Shown: in pieces, positions 1 through 14,238 of the stretch
Layout of the letters: each line of letters opens with the position of its first letter
Numbering within the stretch: the first letter of the stretch is position 1
Assembly (NCBI RefSeq): GCF_014636315.1
Contig: NZ_BMED01000005.1
Span: 124,001-188,000, forward strand
Direction: 5' to 3'
DNA length: 64,000 nucleotides
Source of the DNA: Parundibacterium terreum
GTDB lineage: Bacteria > Pseudomonadota > Gammaproteobacteria > Burkholderiales > Burkholderiaceae_D
Made by a program: the position numbers and the translations under genes
Notes under the pieces: generated by a model
The model's database searches: none
Seen by the model: the letters and a program-made list of their open reading frames with translations, nothing else
What the model was told of the DNA's origin: nothing

Positions 1-651
1 GTCTTCCACCAGGATGATTTCGCCTTTGCGGATCACGCCTATGCGGTCGGCCATCTCTTCGGCTTCCTCGATATAGTGAGTCGTGAGGATGATGGTGACG
101 CCGCTTTCCCGCAAGCCGCGCACCATTTTCCACATGTCGCGGCGCAGTTCCACGTCCACGCCGGCGGTAGGTTCATCCAGGAACAGGATATGCGGTTCAT
201 GCGACAGCGCTTTGGCGATCATCACCCGGCGCTTCATGCCGCCTGACAAGGTCCTGATGCGCGCATCCTTTTTGTCCCACAGCGACAGGTCGCGCAGCAC
301 TTTTTCTATATGAGCTGGATTCGGCGCTTTGCCGAACAGGCCACGGCTGAAGCTGACCGTACTCCATACGCTTTCAAATGCATCGGTCGCAAGCTCTTGC
401 GGCACCAGGCCTATCTTGGAGCGTGCGGCGCGGAAATCAGTAATCACATTGTGTCCATCTGCGAGGATGCTACCGCTGCTGGGATTGACGATGCCGCAGA
501 TGATATTGATCAGTGTGGTCTTGCCGGCACCGTTTGGCCCCAGCAGTGCAAAGATTTCTCCTTGCCGTATATCCAGATCGACGCCTTTTAGCGCCTGAAA
601 GCCCGAGGCATAAGCCTTGGTGAGATTTTTTATTGAGATGATCGCCTGCAT
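1..651 (-). CDS. ABC-2 type transporter ATP-binding protein, partial (C-terminus outside window)
   Basis: Reading the minus strand from an ATG at 651 gives 217 uninterrupted codons that run off the window edge. The visible protein has a Walker A motif GPNGAGKTT near residue 38, the signature LSGGMKRR near residue 137, Walker [13 protein letters not shown] and an H-loop TTHYIEEAE. This is the order of a complete ABC ATPase. The spacing and the MKRR signature fit the ABC-2 (YadG/CcmA-like) export class, whose permease is normally the next gene downstream, here beyond position 1. Only the last part of the protein is missing. The family is clear; the substrate cannot be read from this sequence. 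Confidence 0.93.
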
Positions 652-921
652 GCGATGTCCTTGTTATTGCTTTGAATGGCGGTGATTGTATTATGAATCG
701 CGAATGCGGTACGGGCAGGGCATCAATAAGCCGGTTTGGTCTATATGTTGTGTAGATGGACCCGGCACATTAGGCGGGACTTGGACTGCACGCATGTTCT
801 GGCTGTGTTGTTGCAGTAAGACAATGTGATAGGGAGGTTTTCTTTGTTATCTTCTTTCATTGCTCTCTATTTTTGATCTAAATTCGGTTATTGCGCTCCC
901 ATTTTTTGCTAAATCTACACT

Positions 922-3900
922 GTGGTCTTGTATTTTATTTCTCCGTGGAAATTTATCGGCATTATTGGCAAGCAAGAATGTAAAGTGCGCTGCCAGGGCC
1001 TCTCGTCGACGTTCCCGGATATGTTAGACTGGCAGCAATATCTCAGGCAGAAAGTGGGGCGCATGCTGCACGAAGTGCTGGGCGCATACCTTCGCCTCCA
1101 GACTGTGCGGAAGGATGGCCTCGCTGCTCTGGTATTGCAATCCGGTAACAGGAAAAAAGTGACTGCGCTTTACGAATCTTACGAATACGATATTGTCGAA
1201 CGGCTGCACGTTAGTGATCGATCGCTGGTTTATCGCGCCCTGTCTGCGCAGGGCAAGTTCCCTGTCATTGTCAAAATTCCCAGCAAGGATTTCCCTTCGT
1301 TCCAGGAGGTGGCTCAGTTCAAGCGGGAGTACGCTATCGCGCGCCGCTGCGAGCATGAGGGGATAGTACGTCCCATCGCATTGCGGCAGGTAGTTGGGCG
1401 CTGGACCATGATGCAGGAAGATATAGGCGGCCAGTCCCTGCAACAATTGCTGCGCGAATACCGGGCAAGCAAACAAGAGTTGGAGACGCAGACGGCAATC
1501 CCGCTGGCAGATTTTTTTGACATTGCCCTGCAGCTCTGCGATGCACTAGAAGTCGTGCATGCCAATCACATCATTCATAAAGACATTAACCCCTCCAACC
1601 TGATCTGGAATAGCGGAAAGCGGCTATTGCAGCTGATTGACTTCGGCATCGCCAGCGAGCTGGGCCAAGAGACCACAGGCATCAGCCATCCCAATACGCT
1701 GGAAGGCACGCTGCGTTACATGGCGCCGGAGCAAACCGGGCGTATGAACCGCATTGTTGATTACCGCGCGGACTATTACGCAGTAGGGGCGACCTTTTAT
1801 GAGTTGCTGGCAGGGCAACCGCCTTTTGCCGTTACCGACGCGATGGAGCTGGTGCATTGCCATATCGCGCGCGCGCCGGACTGGACCTTGCTCTCATTGA
1901 AAAACCTGCCGGGTCCATTGCTGCAGATAGTTCAGCGTCTGCTGGAGAAAAATGCAGAGCAGCGCTACCAGAGCATACAGGGTTTGAAGAAAGACCTGGA
2001 GCTATGTCGTGCGATAGCGCAGCAACCTGTGCAGCAGCCGGCCCATTTCACGGGCCTTACCGATCACAGCGGGAAATTTCTGATTCCGCAAAAGCTCTAT
2101 GGTAGGGAGGGCGAAGTTGAAGTGTTGCTCGCCGCATTTGAGCGCATTTCTGATGGCCCCGCTGAGATGTTGCTGGTGGGGGGCTATTCAGGTATAGGCA
2201 AATCGGCGCTGATCAACGAAGTGCACAAACCGATTGTTGCCAGGCGCGGCTGTTTTGTTTCTGGTAAATTCGATCAGTACAGGCGTGATATTCCATATGC
2301 CTCGCTGATTCAGGCTTTTCAGGAATTGATACGACAATTGTTGAGCGAGCCCGAAGCGCAATTGCAGTCATGGGCAGCCAAGCTGCATAACGCGATGGGC
2401 GCCAATCTGGGTGTGATGGCGGAGCTGATTCCGGAGCTGGCGCTGATCGTCGGCAGCATCGAGCCCGTGGCAGAATTGCCGCCGGTGGAGTCGCAAAACC
2501 GACTGAGCCGCAGCTTCTTGCAATTTGTTGGCGTGTTTTCTGCCAAAGACCACCCGCTGGTGATTTTTCTCGATGATTTGCAATGGGCGGATGCGCCCAC
2601 GCTGCGGATCATAGAGCAATTCATGCGCGATGCCAGTGCGTGCCATTTATTGTTTATTGGCGCTTACCGCGACAATGAAGTCAGCCCTGCTCATCCGCTG
2701 ATGAGCCTATGCGATACCTTGCACACACATGGCGCGCCTCTGCATACATTGATGCTGGCGCCGCTGACGGAGCACAACGTCGCCCAACTTAATGCCGATG
2801 CGCTGCGCGTTTCCATGGCGGAGTGTGCTCCGCTGACCCGGCTGTGCTACCAGAAAACCCGCGGCAACCCTTTCTTCCTGAACCAGTTCCTGCAGACTAT
2901 CCACGAGGCGGGCCACCTGACTTATCGCTTCGACCAAAACTGCTGGCAATGGGATATGCAGTCTTTGGAACGCACCGATTACACGCATAATGTTGTCGAA
3001 CTGATGCTGGAAAAAATCCGGCGATTACCACTTTTGACCCAACACATCGTGCAACTGGCGGCCTCGCTGGGTAATCGCTTTGAGTTGGAAACGCTGGCCG
3101 TCATCAGCGAGAGAACGTCTTATCAGGCACAGCAGGATTTGTGGCCTGCACTAAAGGCTGGCCTGATTCATCCACTAGATCATAGCTATAAATACCTGGA
3201 AGAAGAAGAGCCGACAACGCAGATTGCGTACCGTTTCTTGCATGATCGTGTGCAGCAGGCCGCTTACGCTGTAGTCGATGAGGATGCGCGCCGGCAAAAC
3301 CATCTCTGCATAGGCCGTCTTTTGCTGAGGCACGCAACGTCGCGGACGCTGGAAGATCAATTGTTTGCCGTTGTCGAACAATTGAATGCCGGACGTGATC
3401 TGATCCAGGATGGTGACGAACGCCTGCAATTGGCTGCGCTCAATCACCGTGCGGGCGGTAAGGCGAGCGGCGCGGCGGCGTTCCAGGCAGCATTGCGTTA
3501 TATGCGAACAGGCGTATCTTTGCTACCGGATTCCGCTCCGCTGCAGCATATTGAGTTGTATCTGAACCTGCAACTTGGCGTTGCGGAGTCGGCCTACCTG
3601 TGCGGCGAATTTGCGGCTGCGGAAGCAATTTATCCCCTGGCCCTTGCGCATTGCATAACGGAGTTGCAAAAGGTTCGCTGCCTGACCATCCAGGCCCATC
3701 AGTACCAGCTACAGGGGCGCCTGCTGGACGCCATCTCCATCTTGCGTAAAGGCCTGGCCTTGCTGCAGATAGACATTCCCGGCGACGATGCTGTACTACA
3801 GGCGAATATCCCCGCCTTGTTTGCCGATACAGACAAGTTGTGTGCCGGCCGCAGTATCGGCGAACTGCTGATAGCGGAAGAAATGAGCGATCCTGTTTCT

Positions 3901-6294
3901 GTTGCTGCCATGCGGATGATGCAGGGTTTGTGGATGGCGAGCTATTATGCCGGCCAGCAAAATCTGAGCATGACAATGATATTGAGTATGACACGCTTAT
4001 CGCTGCAAAAAGGCAATAGCGACTTCACTTCTGTCGGCTACGTAGGCTTTGCATTTTCGCTTGCCATTCATACGAGAAATGATGAGCGCTCCTATCAGTT
4101 TGGCGCCATGTCCTTGGACCTGGCCAAGCGCCGCACCAACCTGCAGGCGCGTTCCCTCACTTGCTTGATGTTTGCCGCGCTGGTCAATCACTGGAGCCGT
4201 TCCTTGCGGAGTTGCGACGTGTTGTATGAGGATGCGCTCAACTGGGCGCTTGAGAGCGGTGATTTTGTGCAGGTAGGTGTGGTTGCTGCCGTGCGTGCAA
4301 CCGACAGGCTGATCATGGGCCAATACCTGCCTGACTTGCTGCAATCGGCAGAGCGCGACCTGGTGTTGATGCGTGCAAACGGTCAAATGGATATGGTGGA
4401 TTGCTCCATTGCCGGCGCCGTGCAAGCGGCCAAATGCCTGATGGGGCTGACGCCGGATCACGCCAGTTATGATGACGACAGTTTTAGCGAACAAGACTTC
4501 CTGGCAAGCTACGGGCACTCTCGGTTGTTCAGGGCCTATTTTTTGCAGGGCAAGATTCGTAATGCCTACCTGTTTGATAGTGCCGATGCCGAAGCGCTGG
4601 CGGAGCAGCTGGAGGTCGTCACGCAATTGATGCGTGGCCAGGCCAAGGTCGCGGAAGCTACTTTTTATGCGGCCTTGATTTGCATCCGCGCATTGCGGCG
4701 TGCGCCCCAACGCACTGACGCTACCGCCTTGCTGACTCGTATCAGTGCGATGGAAAAAAATCTGGCCGCCTGGGCAGTGCTGGGGCCAGACAATGTCTCC
4801 GCCAAGCACTTGCTGATGCAGGCTGAGTGCGCGCGCTACCGGGAACACATGCAGGATGCGATAGCGTACTACCAGCAAGCGATCGACAGTGCCCGCGATA
4901 CCGGCTATATCAATATCCAGGCGCTGGCCAATGAACTGTGCGGCGAATTCTGGCTGGAGCAAGGACAGCAGCGTATCGCGGAAATTTTCTTGCAGGATGC
5001 GTTAACCCATTACCGCCAGTGGGGCGCGGAGGGCAAGGCCACGCAGTTGGCTGCACGCTACGATTTTCTGAAAGAGCTTGCTTCCGGACGCGCTGGCACC
5101 AGGGTGCGGCATACCACGGCTGCGGTGGCGGCAGGGCACACCATGCTCAAGTCCACCGTCGGCAAGGCAAGTATCACGACCGTCACCAATGCCACTTCCG
5201 TCAATGCTACGCTGGATCTGGCGTCTATCGTCAAGGCTTCGCATGCGCTATCGAACGAGATAGGCTTACGCAACGTGCTGCAAAGGCTGATCGCCATCGT
5301 GCGAGAAAATTCCGGCGCCCAGGTGGCCCGGCTGCTGCTGTTGCACGATGACATATGGCGGATGGAGGCTGACATTTCCGGCGATACGCTTTCCGTGCTG
5401 CAGGCCAGGCACATCAGGCTGGATGCCGATAGCGATAGCCTGTTTCCTCTGTCTCTGCTGCGCTACGTCATACGTAGCGGTGCAGAAGTGATAGAAGACC
5501 GCATAGCAGTTTCACCCCGCTTTGCATTGGATGCCTATGTACAAGCCCACCAGCCCAAGTCGGTGATGTGCCTGCCGATCAAGCAGGGTGGTCGGGTGAG
5601 CGGCATGCTATACCTGGAAAACAATCTGGCGGAGGCTTCCTTCACTGCAGAACGTGTCGAGTTCTTGCGCATTCTGGGTGGCCAGGCGATGATCTCCATC
5701 TCCCACGCCCGTTTGCACGACAGCCTGGAGCAGCGGGTCGCCGAGCGTACCGCTCAGTTGGAAGAAGCCAATCACAAGCTGGCAACCCTGTCTGCCACCG
5801 ATGGCCTCACTGGCCTTGCAAACCGCCGCCGCTTTGACGAGGCGCTGGCCAGCGAATGGAGCAGGGCCACACGTACCCAGCAGCCGCTTGCCGTGATCAT
5901 GATCGACGTGGATCACTTCAAGAAGTACAACGACTGCTACGGCCACCAGGCCGGCGACGAATGCCTGAAAACCGTCGCCCGCGTCTTGCAGGAGGGTACC
6001 CGCCGCATAAGCGATCTCGCCGCACGGTATGGCGGAGAAGAGTTTTCTATTGTGCTGCCCAATACAGAAGCGGACGTCGCCCACAATATCGCCGAATCCA
6101 TGCGCTATGCGATAGAGGCACTCAACATGCGGCATGAGCAATCCCCATTGGGACGGGTCACGGTCAGTATTGGCGTCGCTCTTAAATCGACAGGCTATAG
6201 CGGCGATGCCGAGGGCTTGGTTCGTGCAGCGGACGAGGCCCTGTACCAGGCCAAGGATCAAGGGCGGAATTGCGTGGTTTTGACTGCAGGGTAA
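922..6294 (+). CDS. Giant hybrid signalling protein: Ser/Thr kinase - AAA ATPase - TPR-like - GAF - GGDEF
   Basis: One frame of up to 1790 codons. Domains in order (numbered from 922): an Hanks-type kinase at about 85-370 with lysine in VIVKIPS, HKDINPSN catalytic loop, DFGIAS and MAPEQTGRMNR. An ATPase follows at about 395-680, with Walker A GGYSGIGKSA and Walker B VIFLDDLQWAD. A helical TPR-like stretch runs to about 1400, then a GAF domain at about 1430-1600 and a diguanylate cyclase at about 1625-1789. The cyclase has an intact GGEEF and an RISD inhibitory site five residues before it, so c-di-GMP synthesis with product inhibition is expected. The true start is uncertain. The frame opens at GTG 922, but GTG 1159, preceded by AGGA, begins where family members usually begin; ATG 1021 is another option. 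Such proteins usually end in a histidine kinase or cyclase output. The ligand is unknown. Confidence 0.93.
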   Translation: MVLYFISPWKFIGIIGKQECKVRCQGLSSTFPDMLDWQQYLRQKVGRMLHEVLGAYLRLQTVRKDGLAALVLQSGNRKKVTALYESYEYDIVERLHVSDRSLVYRALSAQGKFPVIVKIPSKDFPSFQEVAQFKREYAIARRCEHEGIVRPIALRQVVGRWTMMQEDIGGQSLQQLLREYRASKQELETQTAIPLADFFDIALQLCDALEVVHANHIIHKDINPSNLIWNSGKRLLQLIDFGIASELGQETTGISHPNTLEGTLRYMAPEQTGRMNRIVDYRADYYAVGATFYELLAGQPPFAVTDAMELVHCHIARAPDWTLLSLKNLPGPLLQIVQRLLEKNAEQRYQSIQGLKKDLELCRAIAQQPVQQPAHFTGLTDHSGKFLIPQKLYGREGEVEVLLAAFERISDGPAEMLLVGGYSGIGKSALINEVHKPIVARRGCFVSGKFDQYRRDIPYASLIQAFQELIRQLLSEPEAQLQSWAAKLHNAMGANLGVMAELIPELALIVGSIEPVAELPPVESQNRLSRSFLQFVGVFSAKDHPLVIFLDDLQWADAPTLRIIEQFMRDASACHLLFIGAYRDNEVSPAHPLMSLCDTLHTHGAPLHTLMLAPLTEHNVAQLNADALRVSMAECAPLTRLCYQKTRGNPFFLNQFLQTIHEAGHLTYRFDQNCWQWDMQSLERTDYTHNVVELMLEKIRRLPLLTQHIVQLAASLGNRFELETLAVISERTSYQAQQDLWPALKAGLIHPLDHSYKYLEEEEPTTQIAYRFLHDRVQQAAYAVVDEDARRQNHLCIGRLLLRHATSRTLEDQLFAVVEQLNAGRDLIQDGDERLQLAALNHRAGGKASGAAAFQAALRYMRTGVSLLPDSAPLQHIELYLNLQLGVAESAYLCGEFAAAEAIYPLALAHCITELQKVRCLTIQAHQYQLQGRLLDAISILRKGLALLQIDIPGDDAVLQANIPALFADTDKLCAGRSIGELLIAEEMSDPVSVAAMRMMQGLWMASYYAGQQNLSMTMILSMTRLSLQKGNSDFTSVGYVGFAFSLAIHTRNDERSYQFGAMSLDLAKRRTNLQARSLTCLMFAALVNHWSRSLRSCDVLYEDALNWALESGDFVQVGVVAAVRATDRLIMGQYLPDLLQSAERDLVLMRANGQMDMVDCSIAGAVQAAKCLMGLTPDHASYDDDSFSEQDFLASYGHSRLFRAYFLQGKIRNAYLFDSADAEALAEQLEVVTQLMRGQAKVAEATFYAALICIRALRRAPQRTDATALLTRISAMEKNLAAWAVLGPDNVSAKHLLMQAECARYREHMQDAIAYYQQAIDSARDTGYINIQALANELCGEFWLEQGQQRIAEIFLQDALTHYRQWGAEGKATQLAARYDFLKELASGRAGTRVRHTTAAVAAGHTMLKSTVGKASITTVTNATSVNATLDLASIVKASHALSNEIGLRNVLQRLIAIVRENSGAQVARLLLLHDDIWRMEADISGDTLSVLQARHIRLDADSDSLFPLSLLRYVIRSGAEVIEDRIAVSPRFALDAYVQAHQPKSVMCLPIKQGGRVSGMLYLENNLAEASFTAERVEFLRILGGQAMISISHARLHDSLEQRVAERTAQLEEANHKLATLSATDGLTGLANRRRFDEALASEWSRATRTQQPLAVIMIDVDHFKKYNDCYGHQAGDECLKTVARVLQEGTRRISDLAARYGGEEFSIVLPNTEADVAHNIAESMRYAIEALNMRHEQSPLGRVTVSIGVALKSTGYSGDAEGLVRAADEALYQAKDQGRNCVVLTAG

Positions 6295-6469
6295 ATATAG
6301 CCAGCCAGCACATCGCCTTTTCTTCGAAAAATATGAAATGGCCCGATTACCGCGCACTTGATTTTAGTTGTCTTTTTGAATGCAAAATAAATTCATTTAA
6401 TTTCCTTTGGGTAATATTGTAAAATGCGAATGTAGGATGAAACATGACATTTATTCAAAAGGGATTTCC

Positions 6470-6643
6470 ATGAAAAAAGAATCTATCGCCATGCTGCAAC
6501 AAGCATTGGCAAGCGGTGCAACCTCTGTCGATTTCAAGCAAAGTGTGGAACAAACAGCCATGGGTTTTATTACGATTGAGCAAACTGCGATGGGTATTGT
6601 TCCTTCTCCAGTTGAGCAAACAGCCATGGGTTATGTTGCCTAA
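6470..6643 (+). CDS. Candidate RiPP precursor peptide with three EQTAMG core repeats (57 aa)
   Basis: ATG at 6470 follows AAAAGGGA at a good distance. An in-frame ATG at 6437 is less well placed. The product has a helical, charged leader of about 25 residues beginning MKKESIAMLQQAL, then VEQTAMGF, IEQTAMGI and VEQTAMGY joined by short linkers, and ends YVA. A leader plus repeated near-identical cores is the layout of multi-core RiPP precursors, such as the actinobacterial thiovarsolins. Sulfur-carrier, YcaO and TfuA genes lie directly downstream, so the repeats are the likely substrate of backbone thioamidation. The repeats lack Cys and Ser, so azole formation is unlikely, although one Thr per unit could in principle be cyclised. 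A TAAAAT at 6420-6425 could be a -10 element, but no good -35 is visible. The function of the mature product is unknown. Confidence 0.75.
   Translation: MKKESIAMLQQALASGATSVDFKQSVEQTAMGFITIEQTAMGIVPSPVEQTAMGYVA
6545..6631 (+). repeat. Three 21-nt coding repeats encoding [VI]EQTAMG
   Basis: Units lie at 6545-6565, 6575-6595 and 6611-6631, so starts are 30 and 36 nt apart (10 and 12 residues). Units 1 and 3 share CAAACAGCCATGGGT. Unit 2 uses different third bases (ACT GCG) yet encodes the same EQTAMG, which suggests selection on the peptide. Confidence 0.9.
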
Positions 6644-6679
6644 GTCTACTGAGACTAGCCAATACGATTGAAGTTGCGA

Positions 6680-6712
6680 AGCGGGCCGATTTAGATCGGC
6701 CCGCTATTTTTT
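6680..6712 (+). terminator. Strong intrinsic terminator or attenuator after the precursor gene
   Basis: An 11-bp perfect stem pairs 6680-6690 (AGCGGGCCGAT) with 6695-6705 around a TTAG loop and is followed by ATTTTTT. It sits 36 nt after the precursor stop and before the maturation genes. It could therefore give abundant precursor transcript with limited read-through. Confidence 0.9.
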
Positions 6713-6831
6713 GTGAAGCTGAACTCGCTTCGGAGCTTGAGCAGAAACAACCACGACACCTGTTTTTCTCTAAAAATCTACTCCGCAAAGCGATCTCTGG
6801 CACAGACTTAAATTACAGAAAAAAGACAGGC

Positions 6832-7107
6832 ATGCCCACTATTTTATTACCACGGCAATTGGCTCAGCGCGCGAGCGGAAATACGCGCATTGATATCAAT
6901 GCCGAAAATATGCAGGTTCTTATCACTAAGCTGTGCGACGAACACCCCTCTTTAAGAGAAGTGCTGCTTGACGGCAAAGGTCGCATTTCCTCATTCATAG
7001 GCGTGTTTATCGATGGCCGGCAGCTTGGTGGAGATACCACCCTGAGCGAAGTCACTCTGGAACCCGACAACTCGATTCAATTGGTAGCAGCGATAGCCGG
7101 AGGCTAG
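6832..7107 (+). CDS. MoaD/ThiS-type ubiquitin-like sulfur carrier protein in the RiPP locus
   Basis: This 91-residue protein has the beta-grasp carrier pattern: an N-terminal strand MPTILLPRQLA, a central HPSLREVLLD, the strand FIGVFIDGR and a C-terminal AAIAGG ending exactly in Gly-Gly. In MoaD, ThiS and relatives that tail is adenylated and converted to a thiocarboxylate, which donates sulfur. No E1-like (MoeB/ThiF) gene lies in the window, so activation would need an enzyme encoded elsewhere. AAGACAGG precedes the ATG. The gene follows a terminator and is tightly joined to the next three genes, with the 40-aa frame starting 3 nt after its stop. I infer that it supplies sulfur to the YcaO/TfuA pair. 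It also resembles the carrier at 12881. Confidence 0.85.
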   Translation: MPTILLPRQLAQRASGNTRIDINAENMQVLITKLCDEHPSLREVLLDGKGRISSFIGVFIDGRQLGGDTTLSEVTLEPDNSIQLVAAIAGG

Positions 7108-7110
7108 ATC

Positions 7111-7233
7111 ATGCAGCAAGAACAGGTGAAAAACCTGCCGACCAGAGGATGCGTTGCTTGTTTGAGGAATCACGACCGGCAGTTTCAGACGCTGGTTGAT
7201 AGTCATAATCACATACCATTCCCCGCTATATGA
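7111..7233 (+). CDS. 40-residue CxxC peptide, translationally coupled to the YcaO gene
   Basis: ATG at 7111 is preceded by GGAGG at 7099-7103 with 7-nt spacing, among the best ribosome binding sites in this region. The stop TGA at 7231-7233 overlaps the YcaO start in an ATGA arrangement. The peptide contains CVAC followed by LRNHD and several histidines (DSHNH), so it could bind metal or carry persulfide. I do not recognise a family. Position, ribosome binding site and 4-nt overlap all argue that it is translated. It could instead be only a leader that couples translation into the YcaO gene. It is too short to be picked up by most gene callers. Confidence 0.6.
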   Translation: MQQEQVKNLPTRGCVACLRNHDRQFQTLVDSHNHIPFPAI

Positions 7234-8483
7234 AAGAAGACGCTCACAGCATGAGCCCGGCAGCGGCAGCTATACGTATGAATTCCAGCCTGCGCGTGCG
7301 CCCCATTGCCGAAAGCCTGAAATACGCCAAGGAGCTGGCGGTCTTGCGAGGTATTACGCGGGTCACAGACACCACCCCTTTGGATCGCATAGGCATTCCT
7401 GTGTTTGCCAGCATACGGCCTGGAGCCGTCGAAGGGTCTTTATGTGTTAACGCAGGAAAGGGTTTGCTGCCGGAGGAAGCCCAGATCGGTGCTTATATGG
7501 AATCGATAGAGTTTTCCTTCGCGGAGGAGGGCGGCGCGCATGTCGGTTTTCAACAATCCACCATTGCGGAGATGCTTGCATCTTATGATGGTCAATTGGA
7601 GCTGAGCGATTTCTCGCCATTGATGGGAAAGACCGCAGGACCAAGTGACAAAATCAAGGTGACACCGGCAGAACTTGTGGGGACGGGCAAAGCGGTTCTA
7701 GTTCCGTCGGAACTGGTATTCCTACCTTTTTTGAGCGCCGATGCAGAGCCGCTGTTTGGTCGAGGTACATCATGCGGGCTGGCATCGGGAAATAGCGTGG
7801 AGGAAGCAAGCGTTCATGCCTTGGCCGAGCTGATTGAACATGACATCGCATCTTTTGAGTTTATCCATGACACCTCCAGTTTGATCGATACTACGCAATT
7901 GACGGGCGCGGCGAGAGCATTGGTTGAAAAAATCGAGCAGGCCGATTTTCATGTTTATCTGCGTCACGTGGAGAATTGCTTTGGAATGCCTTACTTCCAT
8001 GCTGTTATTGCAGAGAACTCCGAGTTTGCAGCAGTTAACATTTGCGGCGGCTATGGAGTGCATCCGGTGAAGGAAATCGCCGCAATCCGGGCACTTGCCG
8101 AGGCCGCTCAATCCCGCTTGAGCACCATTCATGGCGGGAGGGATGATTTAAGTAAATATCCCAAACTGTGGGGTGAATTAGGTCGTGCGGCAGAGCTGGC
8201 AGCTATTGCCGAGTACCGCGCCGAGCTCGCGGATAATTCGCGAGAGGTTGATTTTGAGTCTATCGCCGATTGGTCCGGAAGCGAACTCAGCCTGGATGCG
8301 GCATGGACCGCAATGGTGGATGCGTTGAACAAAAACGGCATCCATCAAATTATTCGCGTGGTATTTACAGAGCCGCAACACAAGCTGCAGGTCGTTAAGC
8401 TGATCGTGCCGAAGATGGAGGATTGCCACTCAGGCTCCATGCGCTTCGGTCCCCGGTTGCGCGCCTACGTCAATTCTTTCTGA
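7230..8483 (+). CDS. YcaO-domain protein (ATP-dependent peptide backbone-modifying enzyme)
   Basis: This 417-residue protein carries the YcaO hallmarks: NAGKGL then YMESIE near residues 89-94, GLASGNSVEEASVHALAELI with IEHD near 182-205, and EAAQSR with GGRDD near 291-304. The glutamates that hold Mg-ATP in this family are present. The C-terminus lacks the PxPxP ending typical of azoline-forming YcaOs. YcaO enzymes phosphorylate a peptide amide oxygen, and with a TfuA partner they install thioamides (thioviridamide type, McrA thioglycine). The start at 7230 overlaps the 40-aa gene and probably relies on coupling; ATG 7251 is an alternative. Likely substrate: the repeat peptide encoded at 6470. 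Confidence 0.92.
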   Translation: MKEDAHSMSPAAAAIRMNSSLRVRPIAESLKYAKELAVLRGITRVTDTTPLDRIGIPVFASIRPGAVEGSLCVNAGKGLLPEEAQIGAYMESIEFSFAEEGGAHVGFQQSTIAEMLASYDGQLELSDFSPLMGKTAGPSDKIKVTPAELVGTGKAVLVPSELVFLPFLSADAEPLFGRGTSCGLASGNSVEEASVHALAELIEHDIASFEFIHDTSSLIDTTQLTGAARALVEKIEQADFHVYLRHVENCFGMPYFHAVIAENSEFAAVNICGGYGVHPVKEIAAIRALAEAAQSRLSTIHGGRDDLSKYPKLWGELGRAAELAAIAEYRAELADNSREVDFESIADWSGSELSLDAAWTAMVDALNKNGIHQIIRVVFTEPQHKLQVVKLIVPKMEDCHSGSMRFGPRLRAYVNSF

Positions 8484-8488
8484 GTGTC

Positions 8489-9160
8489 ATGCACGTGTCA
8501 AATTACGAAAATACTTTTCTATATGTGGGGCCTACGGGCTTTGATGTTGACCTGGATGCGTTGGGCGTTGATGGACTCGTAATCAGGCCGCCTGTCAGGC
8601 GCGGCGACATCCATGCTCTGCTGAATGAGGTTGCTGAGCCTGGCCGCCTTATCATCGTTGATGGGACCTATTTTTCTTTTCCTGCCGTCGGGCATATCGA
8701 ATTGCGGCAGGCTATCGAAGCAGGATGGGAAGTATGGGGTATCTGCTCCATGGGCGCTGTACGTGCATACGAGATGCGTAATCTTGGAATGCGCGGCTAC
8801 GGCAGAGCGTACCAGTCCTTTTTCGAGTACGAGGATTTTCAGGATGATGAGGTTGCGCTGCTACATGGGGATGAACCACCATATTTGTCGATGAGCGAGC
8901 CGCTACTGCATTTGCGAGGCGCAATTTCTGAATTGCTAGCTGACGGGCGCATTTCCAAAGAGATTGCTGAGGCCATCGTGGGAGAGCTTAAGGCAATGTG
9001 GTTCGGCAAGAGAACCTTGCCCAAGGTACGTGACATGCTCGCTGCTCACGGAAGTGTGTTAGGCATATCAGAATTCGAATCGCTGGTGGCTCGGCATCGC
9101 ATCAAGAGGCAGGACTTTCTGCAATTTTTTGAGACTAAACCCTGGCTCAAGTTTGCCTAA
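8489..9160 (+). CDS. TfuA-like protein, YcaO partner
   Basis: This 223-residue protein has the TfuA pattern: LYVGPTGFD near residue 11, PPVRRGDI near 36-43, IIVDGTYF near 55, GICSMGAVRAYE near 84-95 and DDEVALLHGDE near 118-128. TfuA proteins accompany YcaO enzymes that make thioamides and are thought to help deliver sulfur. ATG 8489 lies 5 nt after the YcaO stop. The frame is open further upstream to 8423, but that part overlaps YcaO coding sequence, so I reject it. There is no clear ribosome binding site, which fits coupling to YcaO. This is the last gene of the putative RiPP operon. No protease or exporter gene follows. Confidence 0.9.
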   Translation: MHVSNYENTFLYVGPTGFDVDLDALGVDGLVIRPPVRRGDIHALLNEVAEPGRLIIVDGTYFSFPAVGHIELRQAIEAGWEVWGICSMGAVRAYEMRNLGMRGYGRAYQSFFEYEDFQDDEVALLHGDEPPYLSMSEPLLHLRGAISELLADGRISKEIAEAIVGELKAMWFGKRTLPKVRDMLAAHGSVLGISEFESLVARHRIKRQDFLQFFETKPWLKFA

Positions 9161-9554
9161 CTGGCTTACCGTCCAAACACTTACTGGTTTGGAGTTCTAA
9201 GCGCTTTCGGCAAGAGTACATGCAAGCAAAATCACCTGAGGTTGAATCATTTCTCTTGTGTGATAAACGCCTTCTGTGGGCCGGCTGGAATCGTGGGACA
9301 GAGAAGTAAGTCGCACAACTCAGCCAGTTGCGGAACCGCGCCGCACTATACCTTCGTCCCAAATCAACTACCAACAATAGCTGCACCTGATTCAACGGGA
9401 ATGCTCTGAGATTGGGAGTTGATTGATTACACGAGGTAACAAGTATTGTTCCCATACCTGCCTTTAAGCGCAACGGTGCCGGTAGTAGAGTGAGCATCAC
9501 CGGGACTTGATGCAAGTCCGGCTTTTCAAACAACACTCTTTTCGAAAGCACATC
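9161..9554. other. 394-nt intergenic region after the RiPP locus, no supported gene
   Basis: No convincing reading frame is present. Two weak structures are visible. TCCAAAC/GTTTGGA at about 9171-9192 is a stem without a T-run. CCGGGACTT/AAGTCCGG at about 9499-9520 has one bulge and a CTTTTC tail, just before the SDR gene. Neither is a strong terminator. Confidence 0.5.
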
Positions 9555-10283
9555 ATGACTCAACAGAAAAAAACCATCATCGTAACTGGCGCATCCCAAG
9601 GTATCGGCGCAGGCGTTGCCAATGCCTTCCTGGCGCGTGGCTACAACGTTGTAGCGACTTCGCGTAACGTCAGCAAATCAAGCGACTTGCAGGCATCGGC
9701 CAATCTGGCCGTAGTGGACGGCGACATCGGTGACGCCGCTGTCGCAGCCAAAGTTGTAGAGACCGCAGTGCAGCGTTTCGGCGGCGTGGATGGCCTGGTC
9801 AACAATGCCGGCATCTTCATTGCCAAGCCTTTCACCGACTACACCAGCGAAGATTTTCATAATCTGGTGCATACCAACCTGGAAGGCTATCTGTACGTTA
9901 CCCAATATGCCTTGAAGCAAATGCTGGCGCAAAAGCGCGGCGGTAGCGTGGTTGGCATCACCACTACCTTGCTCACCAATCCGGTAGCGGGCCTGCCAGT
10001 GGGCGTGGCGATGATGACCAAGGGCGGCATGGCCGGCGCCAGTATCAATCTGGCAACCGAATACGCCAAGGACCATATCCGCTTTAACCTGGTGGCGCCT
10101 GGCGCTGTCGATACTCCGCTGCACAAGGATACTCCAAGGGACTTCATGAAATCCCTGTCGCCTATGGGCACTATCGCCACTACGCAGCAGATTGCTGATG
10201 CCGTGCTGTATCTGACCGAAGCGACTCAGGTAACTGGCGAAACCCTGAACGTAGGCGGCGGCGCGCAGCACGGTCGCTGGTAA
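9555..10283 (+). CDS. SDR-family oxidoreductase-like protein lacking the catalytic tyrosine
   Basis: This 242-residue Rossmann protein has the cofactor motif TGASQGIGAG near residues 12-21 and NNAGIF in the usual place. Where a classical SDR has YxxxK, this one reads AMMTK, so the lysine is kept but the tyrosine is replaced by alanine. The serine of the catalytic triad lies in a run of threonines (ITTTLL). The VAPGAVDTP loop and the GGGAQHGRW ending are otherwise normal. It may be a degenerate-active-site subfamily or may use another proton donor. ATG 9555 is chosen over an upstream in-frame start at 9507 because that stretch contains a stem-loop. Whether it belongs with the RiPP genes is unclear, since 394 nt separate them. 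Confidence 0.85.
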   Translation: MTQQKKTIIVTGASQGIGAGVANAFLARGYNVVATSRNVSKSSDLQASANLAVVDGDIGDAAVAAKVVETAVQRFGGVDGLVNNAGIFIAKPFTDYTSEDFHNLVHTNLEGYLYVTQYALKQMLAQKRGGSVVGITTTLLTNPVAGLPVGVAMMTKGGMAGASINLATEYAKDHIRFNLVAPGAVDTPLHKDTPRDFMKSLSPMGTIATTQQIADAVLYLTEATQVTGETLNVGGGAQHGRW

Positions 10284-10465
10284 TCCCTGCGACAGCAGCA
10301 TGAGCACTGAGCGCCGTCCGCCTCCGAATCCGGTGGGCGGCGGCGCTTGTTTGCCTGCCCAGCTTCTGCTCCTGAAATTCCGGCAAGCTTGGTGATGCAG
10401 GCGTTTGGCAGGGTGATTCCTTTCCGGCGTATAATTTTGTTGCAATCTCAACTAAAGAGGACAAT

Positions 10466-10762
10466 ATGAACAAAGGATATTGGGTAGTAGCGTACCGGTC
10501 AGTGTCGGATAAAGCTGCAATGGATGCATACGGCAAACTGGCCAAGCCGGTGATTGATGCCTTTGGTGGCTCCTTGCTGGTGTTTTCCGGCGATGTCGTC
10601 GAGGCGCGCGAAGCCGGCCTGAAGCAGCTAACTGTCGTCGTCGAATTCTCCAGCTATGAGCAGGCCCAGAAGGCCTATGCCAGCGATGCATATCTGGAAG
10701 CGCTTAAAGCACTGGGAAATGGCGCTGAGCGTGATTTCCGTATTGTTGAGGGTTTGGCATAA
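10466..10762 (+). CDS. DUF1330 family protein
   Basis: This 98-residue protein begins MNKGYWVVAYRSVSD and contains FGGSLLVFSGDV and VVVEFSSYEQAQKAY, the ferredoxin-like alpha/beta dimer fold signature of DUF1330 (dimeric alpha-beta barrel superfamily). AGAGGA precedes the ATG at good spacing. It is a single gene between the SDR and a tRNA gene. A GC-rich imperfect inverted repeat at about 10307-10352, followed by TTGTTT, separates it from the SDR and may end that transcript. The biochemical role is not established for the family. Confidence 0.9.
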   Translation: MNKGYWVVAYRSVSDKAAMDAYGKLAKPVIDAFGGSLLVFSGDVVEAREAGLKQLTVVVEFSSYEQAQKAYASDAYLEALKALGNGAERDFRIVEGLA

Positions 10763-10828
10763 GAGTGATGAAACCACTGGTCAAGGATTATTAGCTGCTC
10801 GATAGGAACAAATAATTGCATGCGAGCA

Positions 10829-10871: not shown

Positions 10872-10948
10872 CGGGGCGTAGCGCAGCCTGGTAGCGTACT
10901 TGCATGGGGTGCAAGGGGTCGGAAGTTCGAATCTTCTCGCCCCGACCA
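10872..10948 (+). tRNA. tRNA-Pro, anticodon GGG
   Basis: A 77-nt cloverleaf. The acceptor CGGGGCG pairs fully with CGCCCCG. The D-arm contains AGCCTGGTAGCG. The anticodon stem CTTGC/GCAAG encloses ATGGGGT, giving GGG at 34-36. The T-arm is GGAAG-TTCGAAT-CTTCT, and the 3' CCA is encoded. It reads CCC and CCU. Confidence 0.97.
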
Positions 10949-10991: not shown

Positions 10992-11216
10992 ATTTCTGAA
11001 GTGGGATAGGACCCGATATCCCCACTTCGTTGGTCAAACTATTTACCTATTTTTCGTTGGAATGCGCAGTCTTTCCTCGCCGCATTAGTTTATCTACCGG
11101 ATTTGTATGGTTTTCTTTGAGAAAATTGTCAAAAGGCGTGAAAATACAGGTCTCTGCGCCATCGCGCATTTTTCGAATTCAAATCCCGAATTTATACATT
11201 TTTTCCAAGAGTCATT

Positions 11217-12350
11217 ATGTCCATCAAAATCAGTCAGAACTTTGACGCAGGTGCTATTGAAGTTGTCCGTGCAGAGCAGGCGGGTTCCATTGAGTTGAAG
11301 CTGCGCAAGGATTCGCATGCCGATATCGCGCAGTGGTTTTATTTTCGTTTGCAGGGCGCACGCGGTGAGTCTGCGGTAATGCGCATCACCAATGCCGGCG
11401 AATCCACCTATCCAAAAGGATGGGAAAACTATCGCGCGGTGGCCAGCTATGATCGCGAAGAGTGGTTCCGTGTAGACACCGAGTTCGACGGCAAGACGAT
11501 GACGATACGCCATACACCGGAAGGCGATAGCGTGTACTACGCGTATTTTGAGCCATATAGCTGGGAACGCCATCTGGCGCTGCTGGGCAGCGTCGAGCAT
11601 TCTGCGCTGGCGCGTGTGGTGGACTTGGGCAATACCGTGGACGGCCGCGATCTGAACATGGTGGTGGTTGGCGATCCTTCTGCGAAGAAAAAAGTATGGA
11701 TCATCGCGCGCCAGCATCCGGGCGAGACGATGGCGGAGTGGCTGGTAGAAGGTACGCTGAATGCCTTGCTGGATCCCGCCAATCCGATTGCGCGCCGTAT
11801 CCTGGACAATGCTGTTTTGTATATCGTGCCCAACATGAATCCGGATGGCTCCTACCGCGGCAACCTGCGTACTAATGCTGCGGGCGCCAACTTGAACCGC
11901 GAGTGGATGACGCCGTCGATGGAAACCAGCCCGGAAGTTTTCCTGGTCAAAAACAAGATAATGGAAACCGGCTGCGACCTGTTCCTGGACGTGCATGGCG
12001 ATGAAGCCTTGCCATATGTGTTTGTTGCCGGCAGCGAGATGCTGGAAGGTTTTACCGAGAAGCAGGCCGCACAGCAAAAAGAATTCGTCGATAGCTTTGT
12101 TGCCGCCAGCCCGGATTTCCAGACAGAAGTGGGTTATCTCGCCAGCAAATACAATGAAGATGTGCTGAAGCTGGCCTCCAAGTTTATCGGCCATCAGTTC
12201 AAGTGCGTATCGCTAACTCTGGAATTGCCGTTCAAGGACAATGACAATCTGCCGGATGCGGAAGTGGGCTGGGATGGCGCGCGCAGCATCAAGCTGGGTG
12301 AGGCCATGCTGCAGCCTATCCTCGCCTCGCTGACATCCAAGCTGGGTTGA
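11217..12350 (+). CDS. M14-family zinc carboxypeptidase (cytosolic CCP-like)
   Basis: This 377-residue protein has no signal peptide. An N-terminal beta-sandwich-like segment of about 125 residues (QWFYFRLQG, YPKGWENYRA) precedes the peptidase domain, as in cytosolic carboxypeptidases. Zinc ligands are H167 and E170 in RQHPGETMAEW and H260 in DVHGDEALPY. PNMNPDGSYRGN and GANLNREW contribute substrate-binding residues. E336 in LTLELPFKDN is the catalytic base. Eukaryotic relatives trim glutamates from tubulin; the bacterial substrate is unknown. AAGAG lies 6 nt before the ATG. The CYTH gene follows after 12 nt, so the two are probably cotranscribed. Confidence 0.92.
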   Translation: MSIKISQNFDAGAIEVVRAEQAGSIELKLRKDSHADIAQWFYFRLQGARGESAVMRITNAGESTYPKGWENYRAVASYDREEWFRVDTEFDGKTMTIRHTPEGDSVYYAYFEPYSWERHLALLGSVEHSALARVVDLGNTVDGRDLNMVVVGDPSAKKKVWIIARQHPGETMAEWLVEGTLNALLDPANPIARRILDNAVLYIVPNMNPDGSYRGNLRTNAAGANLNREWMTPSMETSPEVFLVKNKIMETGCDLFLDVHGDEALPYVFVAGSEMLEGFTEKQAAQQKEFVDSFVAASPDFQTEVGYLASKYNEDVLKLASKFIGHQFKCVSLTLELPFKDNDNLPDAEVGWDGARSIKLGEAMLQPILASLTSKLG

Positions 12351-12362
12351 GCCGAGTACACC

Positions 12363-12860
12363 ATGGGCATAGAAATCGAACGCAAGTTTCTGGTCGCCAA
12401 TGAGGGCTGGAGGCAGGACGCAGAAAATACGCCTGGCGCGCATTCTACCTTGATGTGCCAGGGGTATCTGTCGTCCAACGCGGACCGCATTGTCCGCGTG
12501 CGTATCGATGGCGAGCAGGCTTTCCTGACGATCAAGGGTAGGGCGCAGGGCGGCATTGACAACATCAGCCGCGGGGAGTGGGAATACCCCATCCCTGTGG
12601 CTGATGCCCAGGATCTGCTGAAGCTGTGCGAGCAGCCTTTGATAGAAAAGACCCGTTACCGCATCCCTCACGAAGGCCATGTGTGGGAAGTGGATGAATT
12701 CTTTGCCGAAAATGCCGGGCTGATTGTGGCAGAGGTGGAACTGGAGTCTGAACAGCAGGCCTTCGCCCGGCCAGCGTGGCTGGGCGAAGAAGTCAGCCAC
12801 GACAAGCGTTATGCCAATGCGAATCTGCTGCGGCATCCGTTTAGCCAGTGGGATAAATAA
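12363..12860 (+). CDS. CYTH-domain triphosphate tunnel metalloenzyme
   Basis: This 165-residue single-domain protein starts with the ExExK signature EIERKFLV. It continues with RIVRVRIDG, AFLTIKG and EVDEFFAENAGLIVAEVELESE, the alternating charged strands that line the CYTH tunnel. Short bacterial members of this size (NeuTTM type) hydrolyse inorganic triphosphate using Mg. The C-terminal CHAD domain found in longer relatives is absent. It lies between the M14 peptidase and the sulfur-carrier gene in one direction with short gaps, so it is probably in the same transcript. Confidence 0.93.
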   Translation: MGIEIERKFLVANEGWRQDAENTPGAHSTLMCQGYLSSNADRIVRVRIDGEQAFLTIKGRAQGGIDNISRGEWEYPIPVADAQDLLKLCEQPLIEKTRYRIPHEGHVWEVDEFFAENAGLIVAEVELESEQQAFARPAWLGEEVSHDKRYANANLLRHPFSQWDK

Positions 12861-12880
12861 ACCTCTTACCCTCCATTATC

Positions 12881-13150
12881 ATGCCCCGCATCGTCTTCAC
12901 CCAGCAACTGAGCCGCTTCACTGAAGTGCCGGAGGTGGAGGCAGATGCGGCTAGCTTGCGCGAGCTGCTGGAAGCGGCTTTCGCGGTGAACCCCCGTTTG
13001 CGCGATTATGTGACAGACGAGCAGGGGCATATACGTTTTCATGTAGCAGTATTTATAGACGGTAGCCGGGTGCGTGATCGCAGCCGGCTCGACCATGCGC
13101 TGTCTCCGGACAGCACAGTTCATGTATTGCAGGCACTGTCAGGAGGCTGA
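12881..13150 (+). CDS. MoaD/ThiS-family sulfur carrier paired with a propeller protein
   Basis: This 89-residue beta-grasp protein starts MPRIVFTQQL and ends QALSGG with the Gly-Gly tail needed for thiocarboxylate formation. NPRLRDYVTDEQG and VAVFIDGSRV align with the carrier at 6832. Its stop TGA overlaps the start region of the next gene, and AGGAGG lies at its 3' end, so the two are cotranslated. It is not next to moaE, thiG or another cofactor gene, so classical molybdopterin or thiamine roles are unlikely. Its partner is the Asp-box propeller protein, a pairing I recall in other proteobacteria but cannot verify here. Confidence 0.87.
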   Translation: MPRIVFTQQLSRFTEVPEVEADAASLRELLEAAFAVNPRLRDYVTDEQGHIRFHVAVFIDGSRVRDRSRLDHALSPDSTVHVLQALSGG

Positions 13151-13152
13151 TG

Positions 13153-14238
13153 ATGAAAGCAATGGTGGCGACCCGTAAGGGCTTGTTTGAATTGAACCGT
13201 CAGCCTGGCGGCTGGGAACTCGGTGACTCCAGTTTTTTGGGGGAGCCGGTCAGCATGGTGCTACACGACAGGCGAGATGGTGCGACCTATGCAGCGCTGA
13301 ACCTGGGGCACTTTGGCAGCAAACTGCACAGGCGCGATGCCGGCAGCGGCACCTGGACGGAAATTGCAGTACCGGCTTATCCGCCGCAGCCGGAATCTGC
13401 CAAGGACGAGGTGGAGTGGAAGCTGCAATTTATCTGGACCCTCGCCGCTGGCGGGCCGGACCAGCCCGGTGTGCTGTGGGCCGGCACCTTGCCGGGCGGC
13501 CTGTTCCGGTCCAATGACAGAGGCGAGTCCTGGCAGTTGATGCGTTCTCTGTGGGATATGCCGCAACGTAAGGACTGGTTCGGCGGCGGTTATGATGTGC
13601 CCGGCATACATTCCATCTGTGTCGACCCTCGGGACAGCAATACGGTGCTGGTCGGAATTTCCTGTGGCGGTGCGTGGATCACGCGGGATGGCGGCGCCAG
13701 CTGGTCGCTGAGCGCAAAGGGCATGAGCGCCAACTATGTGCCGCCGGAGCGTGCCGATGATGAGGGCATACAGGATCCACACCTGATCAGCCGCTGTGCC
13801 TCTGCACCGGATGTGCTGTGGTGCCAGCATCACAATGGCATCTGGCGCAGTGAGGATGGCGGTGCTTTCTGGCAGCAATTGCATCCACAGGGTGGTTTGC
13901 CGGATTTTGGTTTTGCAGTGGCAACGCATCCGCATGATCCCAATACTGCCTGGTTTGTTCCTGCGCAGGCCGACCAGAGGCGTGTCCCTGCCGATGCAGC
14001 GCTGATGGTCACGCGCACCAGTGATGGCGGTAAAAGTTTTGAGGCGCTGCGCACGGGTTTGCCGCAGCAGCATTGCTATGACCTGATCTACCGGCATAGC
14101 CTCGTCGTGTCAGATGACGGTAATGCCTTGCTGATGGCGTCCACTACCGGCAGCCTGTGGGCGTCGGAAAGCGGCGGCGAGCAATGGCAGGAAGTGTCTT
14201 CCAACTTGCCGCCTATCTATGCAGTGCGCTTTTACTGA
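13153..14238 (+). CDS. Asp-box (BNR/sialidase-like) beta-propeller protein
   Basis: The protein of about 361 residues has no signal peptide. It contains repeated Asp-box motifs SNDRGESWQL, TRDGGASWSL, SEDGGAFWQQ, TSDGGKSFEA and SESGGEQWQE, spaced as in a six- or seven-bladed propeller. ATG 13153 sits 6 nt after AGGAGG and gives MKAMVATRKGLF; ATG 13150, which overlaps the previous stop, is the alternative. The arginine triad of true sialidases is not obvious, so annotation as a glycosidase would be premature. It is coupled to the sulfur-carrier gene and may be its acceptor or partner. Confidence 0.88.
   Translation: MKAMVATRKGLFELNRQPGGWELGDSSFLGEPVSMVLHDRRDGATYAALNLGHFGSKLHRRDAGSGTWTEIAVPAYPPQPESAKDEVEWKLQFIWTLAAGGPDQPGVLWAGTLPGGLFRSNDRGESWQLMRSLWDMPQRKDWFGGGYDVPGIHSICVDPRDSNTVLVGISCGGAWITRDGGASWSLSAKGMSANYVPPERADDEGIQDPHLISRCASAPDVLWCQHHNGIWRSEDGGAFWQQLHPQGGLPDFGFAVATHPHDPNTAWFVPAQADQRRVPADAALMVTRTSDGGKSFEALRTGLPQQHCYDLIYRHSLVVSDDGNALLMASTTGSLWASESGGEQWQEVSSNLPPIYAVRFY

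What the first reader, a model, noticed from the sequence alone, without database searches (positions are those of the whole stretch)
6470..9160. Compact YcaO-TfuA RiPP locus with a three-repeat EQTAMG precursor
A 57-aa leader-plus-repeat peptide, a GG-tail sulfur carrier, a CxxC micropeptide, YcaO and TfuA are packed within 2.7 kb on one strand. YcaO with TfuA is established for thioamide installation (thioviridamide family, McrA thioglycine). Known peptide products are mostly actinobacterial. A betaproteobacterial version with EQTAMG cores and its own sulfur carrier looks undescribed as far as I know. Inference: up to three small thioamidated peptides are released per precursor.
Basis: partly seen in the sequence, partly recalled or inferred. 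Interest (0 to 1): 0.92.

Follow-up and report, generated by a model that had tools for sequence, protein, structure and literature searches.

The report
Minimal thioamide-peptide locus with repeat precursor
A five-gene bacterial locus very probably makes a small peptide in which a six-residue motif, repeated three times, has sulfur put into its backbone; the enzymes belong to a known kind but the peptide is of a type not seen elsewhere in what was searched.

Summary
On one strand lie a 57-aa peptide with three EQTAMG copies, a terminator hairpin, a GG-tailed sulfur carrier, a 40-aa CxxC ORF, YcaO and TfuA. The repeats differ only at third codon positions. The YcaO model is nearest to the McrA-type M. 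jannaschii YcaO. Sister clusters (YcaO up to 46% identical; Pseudomonas, Glaciimonas, Herbaspirillum, Pantoea and others) typically run precursor, hairpin, YcaO, TfuA, HExxH protein, carrier, E1, exporter; the Pseudomonas version is in print. Their precursors carry H-x-[A/S]-N-N. The window keeps the enzymes and the precursor-hairpin order, but its precursor is unrelated and the last genes are missing. No homologue of the EQTAMG peptide was found in three overlapping genome samples, plasmids, phages or viral contigs. The YcaO is in 1 of 43 genus genomes, inside a variable block by tRNA-Pro. Best reading: a thioamide RiPP with a repeated core, modified at Met-Gly (as in ribosomal uL16) or Gly (as in McrA). 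Chemistry, release of three peptides and function are untested. New variant of a known kind.

The parts
6470..6643 (+). Putative RiPP precursor, 57 aa, leader about residues 1-25, then VEQTAMGF / IEQTAMGI / VEQTAMGY
   Evidence: AAGGG ribosome-binding-like site upstream; no Pfam or NCBIfam match up to E 0.1
6548..6565 (+). EQTAMG copy 1 (GAACAAACAGCCATGGGT)
6578..6595 (+). EQTAMG copy 2 (GAGCAAACTGCGATGGGT)
6614..6631 (+). EQTAMG copy 3 (GAGCAAACAGCCATGGGT)
6680..6705 (+). Intrinsic-terminator-like or attenuator hairpin (11 pairs, 8 GC, then a T run) between the precursor and the enzyme genes
   Evidence: (z -4.4, 0 of 200 shuffles as stable)
6832..7107 (+). Sulfur carrier protein, 91 aa, SAMP1/CysO/MoaD-like, C-terminal GG
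7111..7233 (+). CxxC ORF, 40 aa, with a GGAGG site lying in the carrier's last codons; role unknown; no tblastn match (E 1e-3) in the sister loci
7230..8483 (+). YcaO ATP-dependent backbone-activating enzyme, 417 aa (start uncertain: 7230, 7251 or 7278)
8489..9160 (+). TfuA partner, 223 aa, Ser87 and Lys206 shared with its kin

Best explanation
A compact ribosomal-peptide locus that installs backbone thioamides in a precursor carrying three core repeats. Proposed steps: (a) the precursor gene is transcribed strongly and mostly stops at the hairpin; read-through makes the enzymes (inferred from the anatomy). (b) The GG-tailed carrier is adenylated and loaded with sulfur at its C terminus by an E1/MoeB-type enzyme encoded elsewhere in the genome (inferred; candidates found). 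(c) TfuA hydrolyses the carrier thiocarboxylate and hands sulfide to YcaO (known for an archaeal TfuA; inferred here). (d) YcaO uses ATP to activate a backbone amide in each [VI]EQTAMG[FIY] unit and replaces O by S. The likeliest site is within A-M-G-[FIY]: the Met-Gly amide, as in ribosomal uL16 Met82-Gly83, or the Gly carbonyl before an aromatic or aliphatic residue, as in McrA. (e) Release and export are by general host functions, or the modified peptide works uncut. The enzyme set probably descends from, or shares an ancestor with, a cluster family with H-x-[A/S]-N-N precursors, and the precursor has been replaced.
For: YcaO and TfuA families; the best NCBIfam profiles are the McrA thioamidation pair, below cut-off; the YcaO model matches M. 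jannaschii YcaO in complex with peptide best. TfuA Ser87 and Lys206 are invariant in 22 of 22 aligned rows (8 of 30 collected rows were dropped as fused, broken or distant). The carrier folds like SAMP1/CysO. Three repeats with third-position differences only. The order peptide, hairpin, next gene is shared: a stable hairpin follows the precursor in the window (0 of 60 shuffles as stable) and in sister loci (18 of 21 with 0 of 100 shuffles, 2 with 1, 1 with 9; many are close Pseudomonas kin). Repeat-core precursor with YcaO-TfuA is established for thiovarsolin (PMC6511847); a Met82 thioamide made by a YcaO in uL16 (PMC13063428); carrier plus TfuA as sulfide route. E1-like (37%, 252-aa ORF) and rhodanese-region matches exist in the genome.
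Against: No homologue of the precursor, so no covariation of peptide and enzymes. Neither the EQTAMG peptide nor the CxxC ORF scores with a profile of 16 sister precursors. The window YcaO has His at position 204, where 24 of 25 aligned rows have Arg, and a long tree branch (1.61): it could be drifting. No E1, HExxH gene or exporter at the locus. The promoter scan found none on the + strand. No chemistry was tested.
Confidence: 0.72

Rival explanations
1. The enzymes act on another substrate: the EQTAMG peptide is not the YcaO substrate (for example a regulatory leader peptide, or a free-standing small protein), and the true precursor is the CxxC ORF or lies elsewhere.
For: The CxxC ORF sits immediately upstream of ycaO, where most sister precursors sit, and holds an SHN triplet; the hairpin between the peptide and the enzymes could be a leader attenuator.
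Against: The CxxC ORF does not score with the sister precursor profile (-1.4 bits, inside the noise of 503 window ORFs), though the EQTAMG peptide does not either (-0.4 bits). Repeated six-residue units are not expected of an attenuator peptide (general knowledge), and sister loci have the same precursor-then-hairpin order.
Confidence: 0.13
2. The locus is a decaying remnant: a sister-type cluster that lost its HExxH gene, E1 and exporter and is no longer functional.
For: Missing genes, Arg204 replaced by His, long branch, present in 1 of 43 genus genomes.
Against: All ORFs are open; every other YcaO position kept in at least 24 of 25 rows is kept in the window; repeats differ only at synonymous positions; a precursor that matches nothing in the sister family is not explained by decay.
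Confidence: 0.1
3. YcaO uses a side chain of the core as nucleophile and makes an azoline rather than a thioamide (Thr in EQTAMG).
For: Thr is in every repeat; other YcaO proteins make azolines (PMC5589413 passages).
Against: TfuA and a GG-tailed sulfur carrier are encoded, and no recognition-element or cyclodehydratase partner appears among the Pfam matches of the locus; the fold match is to the stand-alone archaeal YcaO.
Confidence: 0.05

Closest known systems
Pseudomonas 'YcaO cluster' (PMC8719888; one passage read) and its relatives found here, with H-x-[A/S]-N-N precursors
   Same: YcaO (46% identical at best), TfuA, GG-tailed ubiquitin-like carrier, precursor first and followed by a hairpin
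   Different: Window precursor unrelated and repeated; no HExxH protein, E1-rhodanese or MFS at the locus; carrier placed before YcaO instead of after the HExxH gene
Thiovarsolin cluster of Streptomyces varsoviensis (PMC6511847; abstract and passages read)
   Same: YcaO-TfuA acting on a precursor with tandem core repeats; no dedicated protease
   Different: Repeats hold APR, not EQTAMG; extra genes (heme oxygenase-like, amidinotransferase, ATP-grasp ligase); actinobacterial
McrA thioglycine pair of methanogens (PMC5589413; passages read)
   Same: Same enzyme pair and fold; Gly in the core
   Different: Substrate is a large enzyme; window proteins score below the McrA equivalog cut-offs
E. coli YcaO acting on uL16 Met82-Gly83 (PMC13063428; abstract and passages read)
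   Same: Met-Gly thioamide precedent for the A-M-G core
   Different: No TfuA, larger YcaO, folded protein substrate
std cluster, Asn thioamide (PMC13174530, preprint; passages read)
   Same: YcaO-TfuA on a short peptide motif
   Different: SNKEWQE motif, MNIO and carbamoyltransferase; no repeats mentioned in what was read

Membership tests
YcaO-TfuA thioamidated RiPP | Adjacent ycaO and tfuA genes | tested here: met
   5-nt gap, Pfam matches
YcaO-TfuA thioamidated RiPP | Small precursor gene beside them | tested here: met
   57-aa ORF with ribosome-binding-like site and terminator-like hairpin, same order as the sisters; expression not tested
YcaO-TfuA thioamidated RiPP | Thioamide in the product | not testable with these tools
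   needs mass spectrometry
H-x-[A/S]-N-N cluster family (Pseudomonas 'YcaO cluster' type) | YcaO of that clade | tested here: inconclusive
   46% identity at best; the tree groups the window with 8 of them with weak support 83/84 and a long branch
H-x-[A/S]-N-N cluster family (Pseudomonas 'YcaO cluster' type) | Precursor with H-x-[A/S]-N-N | tested here: not met
   profile of 16 precursors scores neither window peptide; such precursor stretches seen in 23 of 25 related loci
H-x-[A/S]-N-N cluster family (Pseudomonas 'YcaO cluster' type) | HExxH protein, E1-rhodanese and MFS genes | tested here: not met
   no tblastn match at the window locus; sisters 24, 21 and 22 of 25; HExxH gene not found in the own genome at E 1 (no positive control in that run)
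Thiovarsolin type | APR repeats and tailoring genes | tested here: not met
   EQTAMG repeats; neighbours given to Pfam are a kinase-GGDEF protein, an SDR and DUF1330
Thioviridamide-like thioamitides | Phosphotransferase and HopA1-like genes (PMC8153245 passages) and a related core | tested here: not met
   no such gene among the locus and neighbour proteins given to Pfam; precursor compared by eye from recall only
McrA thioglycine pair | NCBIfam equivalog scores | tested here: not met
   183.3 of 365 bits and 109.5 of 235.2 bits
Sulfur carrier protein (ThiS/MoaD/SAMP) | Beta-grasp fold and C-terminal GG | tested here: met
   the Pfam ThiS profile itself does not match
TfuA hydrolase | Ser-Lys pair (recalled from the abstract of a Nat Chem Biol 2021 paper, not held) | tested here: inconclusive
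   Ser87 and Lys206 invariant in 22 of 22 rows, but not mapped on the published pair: the alignment to 6xp8 ends before the Lys

The most novel reading that the evidence does not exclude
The enzymes of an H-x-N-N type cluster have been re-aimed at a wholly new substrate: a three-repeat peptide in which YcaO-TfuA makes Met-Gly thioamides, the same bond that housekeeping YcaO modifies in ribosomal protein uL16. The product works uncut, for example as a three-site soft-metal ligand combining Met thioether and thioamide sulfur, which would explain why HExxH and exporter genes are absent.
Probability: 0.1. Interest if true: 0.75.

Novelty: new variant of a known kind. Interest (0 to 1): 0.5.

Why it matters
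According to a 2021 survey, all thioamidated RiPPs then known from YcaO-TfuA came from actinobacteria (PMC8120280). A 2.7-kb locus with a repeated core and its own sulfur carrier would be an easy system in which to ask how YcaO chooses its amide, how TfuA takes sulfide from a carrier, and how one enzyme set can change substrate altogether. The sister clusters, with an H-x-[A/S]-N-N core in two phyla (Pseudomonadota, and Streptomyces in Actinomycetota), are a ready comparison set.

Tried and rejected
Searched for EQTAMG homologues: family, order and phylum samples (294, 399 and 398 genomes, own genome included in each, overlapping), 72,556 plasmid records, 50,697 phage records, viral contigs, paper text: none beyond the own genome. 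Five weak hits (E 0.003-0.04) lie inside long frames of 255 to 1131 aa and were set aside as chance, without further test. Viral contigs for YcaO: none.

CxxC ORF as a divergent H-x-N-N precursor (it holds SHN): rejected on profile score, though so short a peptide could be missed.

Empty site: a DNA search with the SDR gene found it in 1 of 43 genus genomes, so it could not anchor; the M14 gene did (40 of 43). In one search my SDR protein query was read in a wrong frame, so its absence there counts for nothing; the DNA comparison in the same call carries the point. Only one of the six relatives fetched (L058, from a genome 56% complete) shows both flanks.

A class search at E 1e-40 found only the own genome among 369; that threshold would have hidden weaker relatives.
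Full report
Observation. The window holds, on the + strand, a 57-aa ORF with three EQTAMG copies (6470-6643), a 91-aa GG-tailed protein (6832-7107), a 40-aa CxxC ORF (7111-7233), YcaO (7230-8483) and TfuA (8489-9160). Gaps are 188, 3, -4 and 5 nt. Pfam names YcaO and TfuA clearly. The repeats are not chance, and their only differences are at third codon positions: three variable sites, six pairwise differences. A terminator-like hairpin with an 11-pair stem and a T run follows the peptide gene. The simple promoter scan found no + strand promoter in 6250-9700.

What the proteins are. The carrier matches SAMP1 by sequence below the cut-off; its model (mean pLDDT 88.9) matches SAMP1, CysO and MoaD-type structures. 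The YcaO model (mean pLDDT 84.7, pTM 0.87) is nearest to the M. jannaschii YcaO, with the E. coli YcaO from rank 25 down. TfuA matches one solved structure by sequence, 6xp8. Ser87 and Lys206 are kept in all 22 rows aligned, of 30 rows collected. Of the YcaO positions kept in at least 24 of 25 rows (34 collected, 9 dropped), the window departs at one: His where the others have Arg204.

Relatives. Tblastn against plasmids (E 1e-30) gave two (Pantoea ananatis, Paraburkholderia megapolitana). A scan of GTDB species contigs with two motifs from an alignment of three YcaOs matched 164 stretches, of which 23 distinct loci encode relatives, the best 46% identical to the window; a relative lacking both motifs would be missed. 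Of these 25 loci, 25 have TfuA, 24 a homologue of a roughly 260-aa protein with HExxH, 20 a GG-tailed carrier, 21 a ThiF-type E1 and 22 an MFS protein; some contigs end early and some genes are in pieces. In the one member given to Pfam the E1 has a rhodanese domain, and the HExxH protein matches no family. HExxH was read in 24 of 26 collected rows; the two without it are pieces. In 23 of 25 a short H-x-[A/S]-N-N stretch (H-H-S-N-N in L024) lies near YcaO; not found in L027 and L028; in L014, L020 and L026 it was seen by tblastn only and the start of the ORF was not checked. I tested 21 of those 23 (not L020, L025) for a hairpin after the peptide: 18 had 0 of 100 shuffles as stable, L006 and L026 had 1, L015 had 9. 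Most Pseudomonas loci are near copies of each other, so these are not independent. The Pseudomonas form of this cluster is already listed in print (PMC8719888).

How the window differs. The EQTAMG peptide and the CxxC ORF do not score with a profile of 16 sister precursors (-0.4 and -1.4 bits, inside the noise of 503 window ORFs, of which the best scores 5.4). The carrier lies upstream of YcaO. There is no HExxH gene, E1 or exporter; the own genome has no HExxH homologue at E 1 (that run had no positive control, but the same query finds sisters at 29-38% identity by tblastn). It does have an E1-like ORF of 252 aa (37% over the ThiF part) and a match to the rhodanese part (41%). In the YcaO tree of 27 rows the window falls among the sister clusters with weak support (83/84) on a long branch.

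Distribution. YcaO at E 1e-15 is in 1 of 43 genus genomes and 7 of 392 family genomes, own included; at E 1e-40 in 1 of 369 of the class. Two of those seven sit on contigs with the lengths of Glaciimonas immobilis and Herbaspirillum autotrophicum contigs, which places the window in or near Oxalobacteraceae (inference). Of six genus relatives fetched, one (L058, 83-87% DNA identity in the flanks) matches both window 1-702 and 11100-14186 but carries other DNA between; in five of six (L058, L059, L060, L062, L063) the match to the tRNA-Pro region (tRNA at 10872-10948) is in the opposite orientation to the neighbouring M14 gene. So 703-10810 looks like a variable block, and the locus was probably acquired. 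GC is 43-55% across 6250-9249 against 54-60% in 3000-5999.

Mechanism. Shown: gene content, fold families, repeat, hairpin. Established elsewhere: YcaO-TfuA makes thioamides; an archaeal TfuA hydrolyses thiocarboxylated ThiS (quoted in PMC8153245; see also PMC13063428); a YcaO thioamidates Met82 before Gly83 in uL16; YcaO-TfuA is required for a thioglycine in McrA (PMC5589413); thiovarsolin has repeated cores and no cluster protease. Inferred: the modified bond lies in A-M-G-[FIY]. That McrA has a hydrophobic residue before and an aromatic after the modified Gly is recalled, not read. Whether the repeats are cut apart is open: by eye there are no basic or GG sites between them.

Novelty. Paper searches (open-licence library only): EQTAMG 0 papers; TfuA with Oxalobacteraceae 0; TfuA with YcaO, ThiF and MoaD 1; TfuA with ubiquitin-like, YcaO and Pseudomonas 2; TfuA with thioamide and RiPP from 2021 10; two more listings. 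Malit et al. (PMC8120280: abstract, passages and two sections read) report 797 precursor clusters and 2,972 singletons in supplements that I could not read, so this peptide may be among them unnamed. Verdict: a new variant of a known kind; the enzymes and sulfur carrier are known, the repeat precursor and the stripped-down arrangement are not among the relatives found here.

Noticed in passing
L004-L026 (precursor coordinates): A precursor family with an acidic leader and a conserved H-x-[A/S]-N-N core beside YcaO-TfuA-HExxH-carrier-E1-MFS in Pseudomonas, Enterobacterales, Burkholderiales, a Hoeflea and Streptomyces; product unknown to me.
   Followed up: partly
L042:9506-10909 (-): One 467-aa ORF reads as GG-containing carrier, rhodanese-like and ThiF-type E1 parts in a row, directly before YcaO and TfuA: the carrier's GG is internal.
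   Followed up: partly
window 12881-13150 and 13150-14238: A second GG-tailed ThiS-family protein next to a BNR/Vps10-like protein; the pair is kept in 5 of 6 genus relatives examined, so it looks core and separate from the RiPP locus.
   Followed up: partly
window 703-10810: Variable block next to tRNA-Pro(GGG); in L058 the equivalent stretch holds unrelated genes, and the tRNA region is inverted relative to 5 of 6 relatives.
   Followed up: partly
window 922-6294: 1790-aa protein kinase, AAA, GAF and GGDEF fusion just upstream of the locus.
   Followed up: no
window 9555-10283: SDR oxidoreductase about 395 nt downstream of TfuA, found in 1 of 43 genus genomes at DNA level; could be a tailoring enzyme, no evidence.
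   Followed up: no
L005:15112-17146: A second MFS and a second YcaO gene downstream of the Paraburkholderia plasmid cluster.
   Followed up: no
L016, L027 (Streptomyces): Sister clusters without a carrier or E1 match nearby, although YcaO, TfuA, the HExxH protein and MFS are kept; an H-E-A-N-N precursor was seen in L016 only.
   Followed up: no
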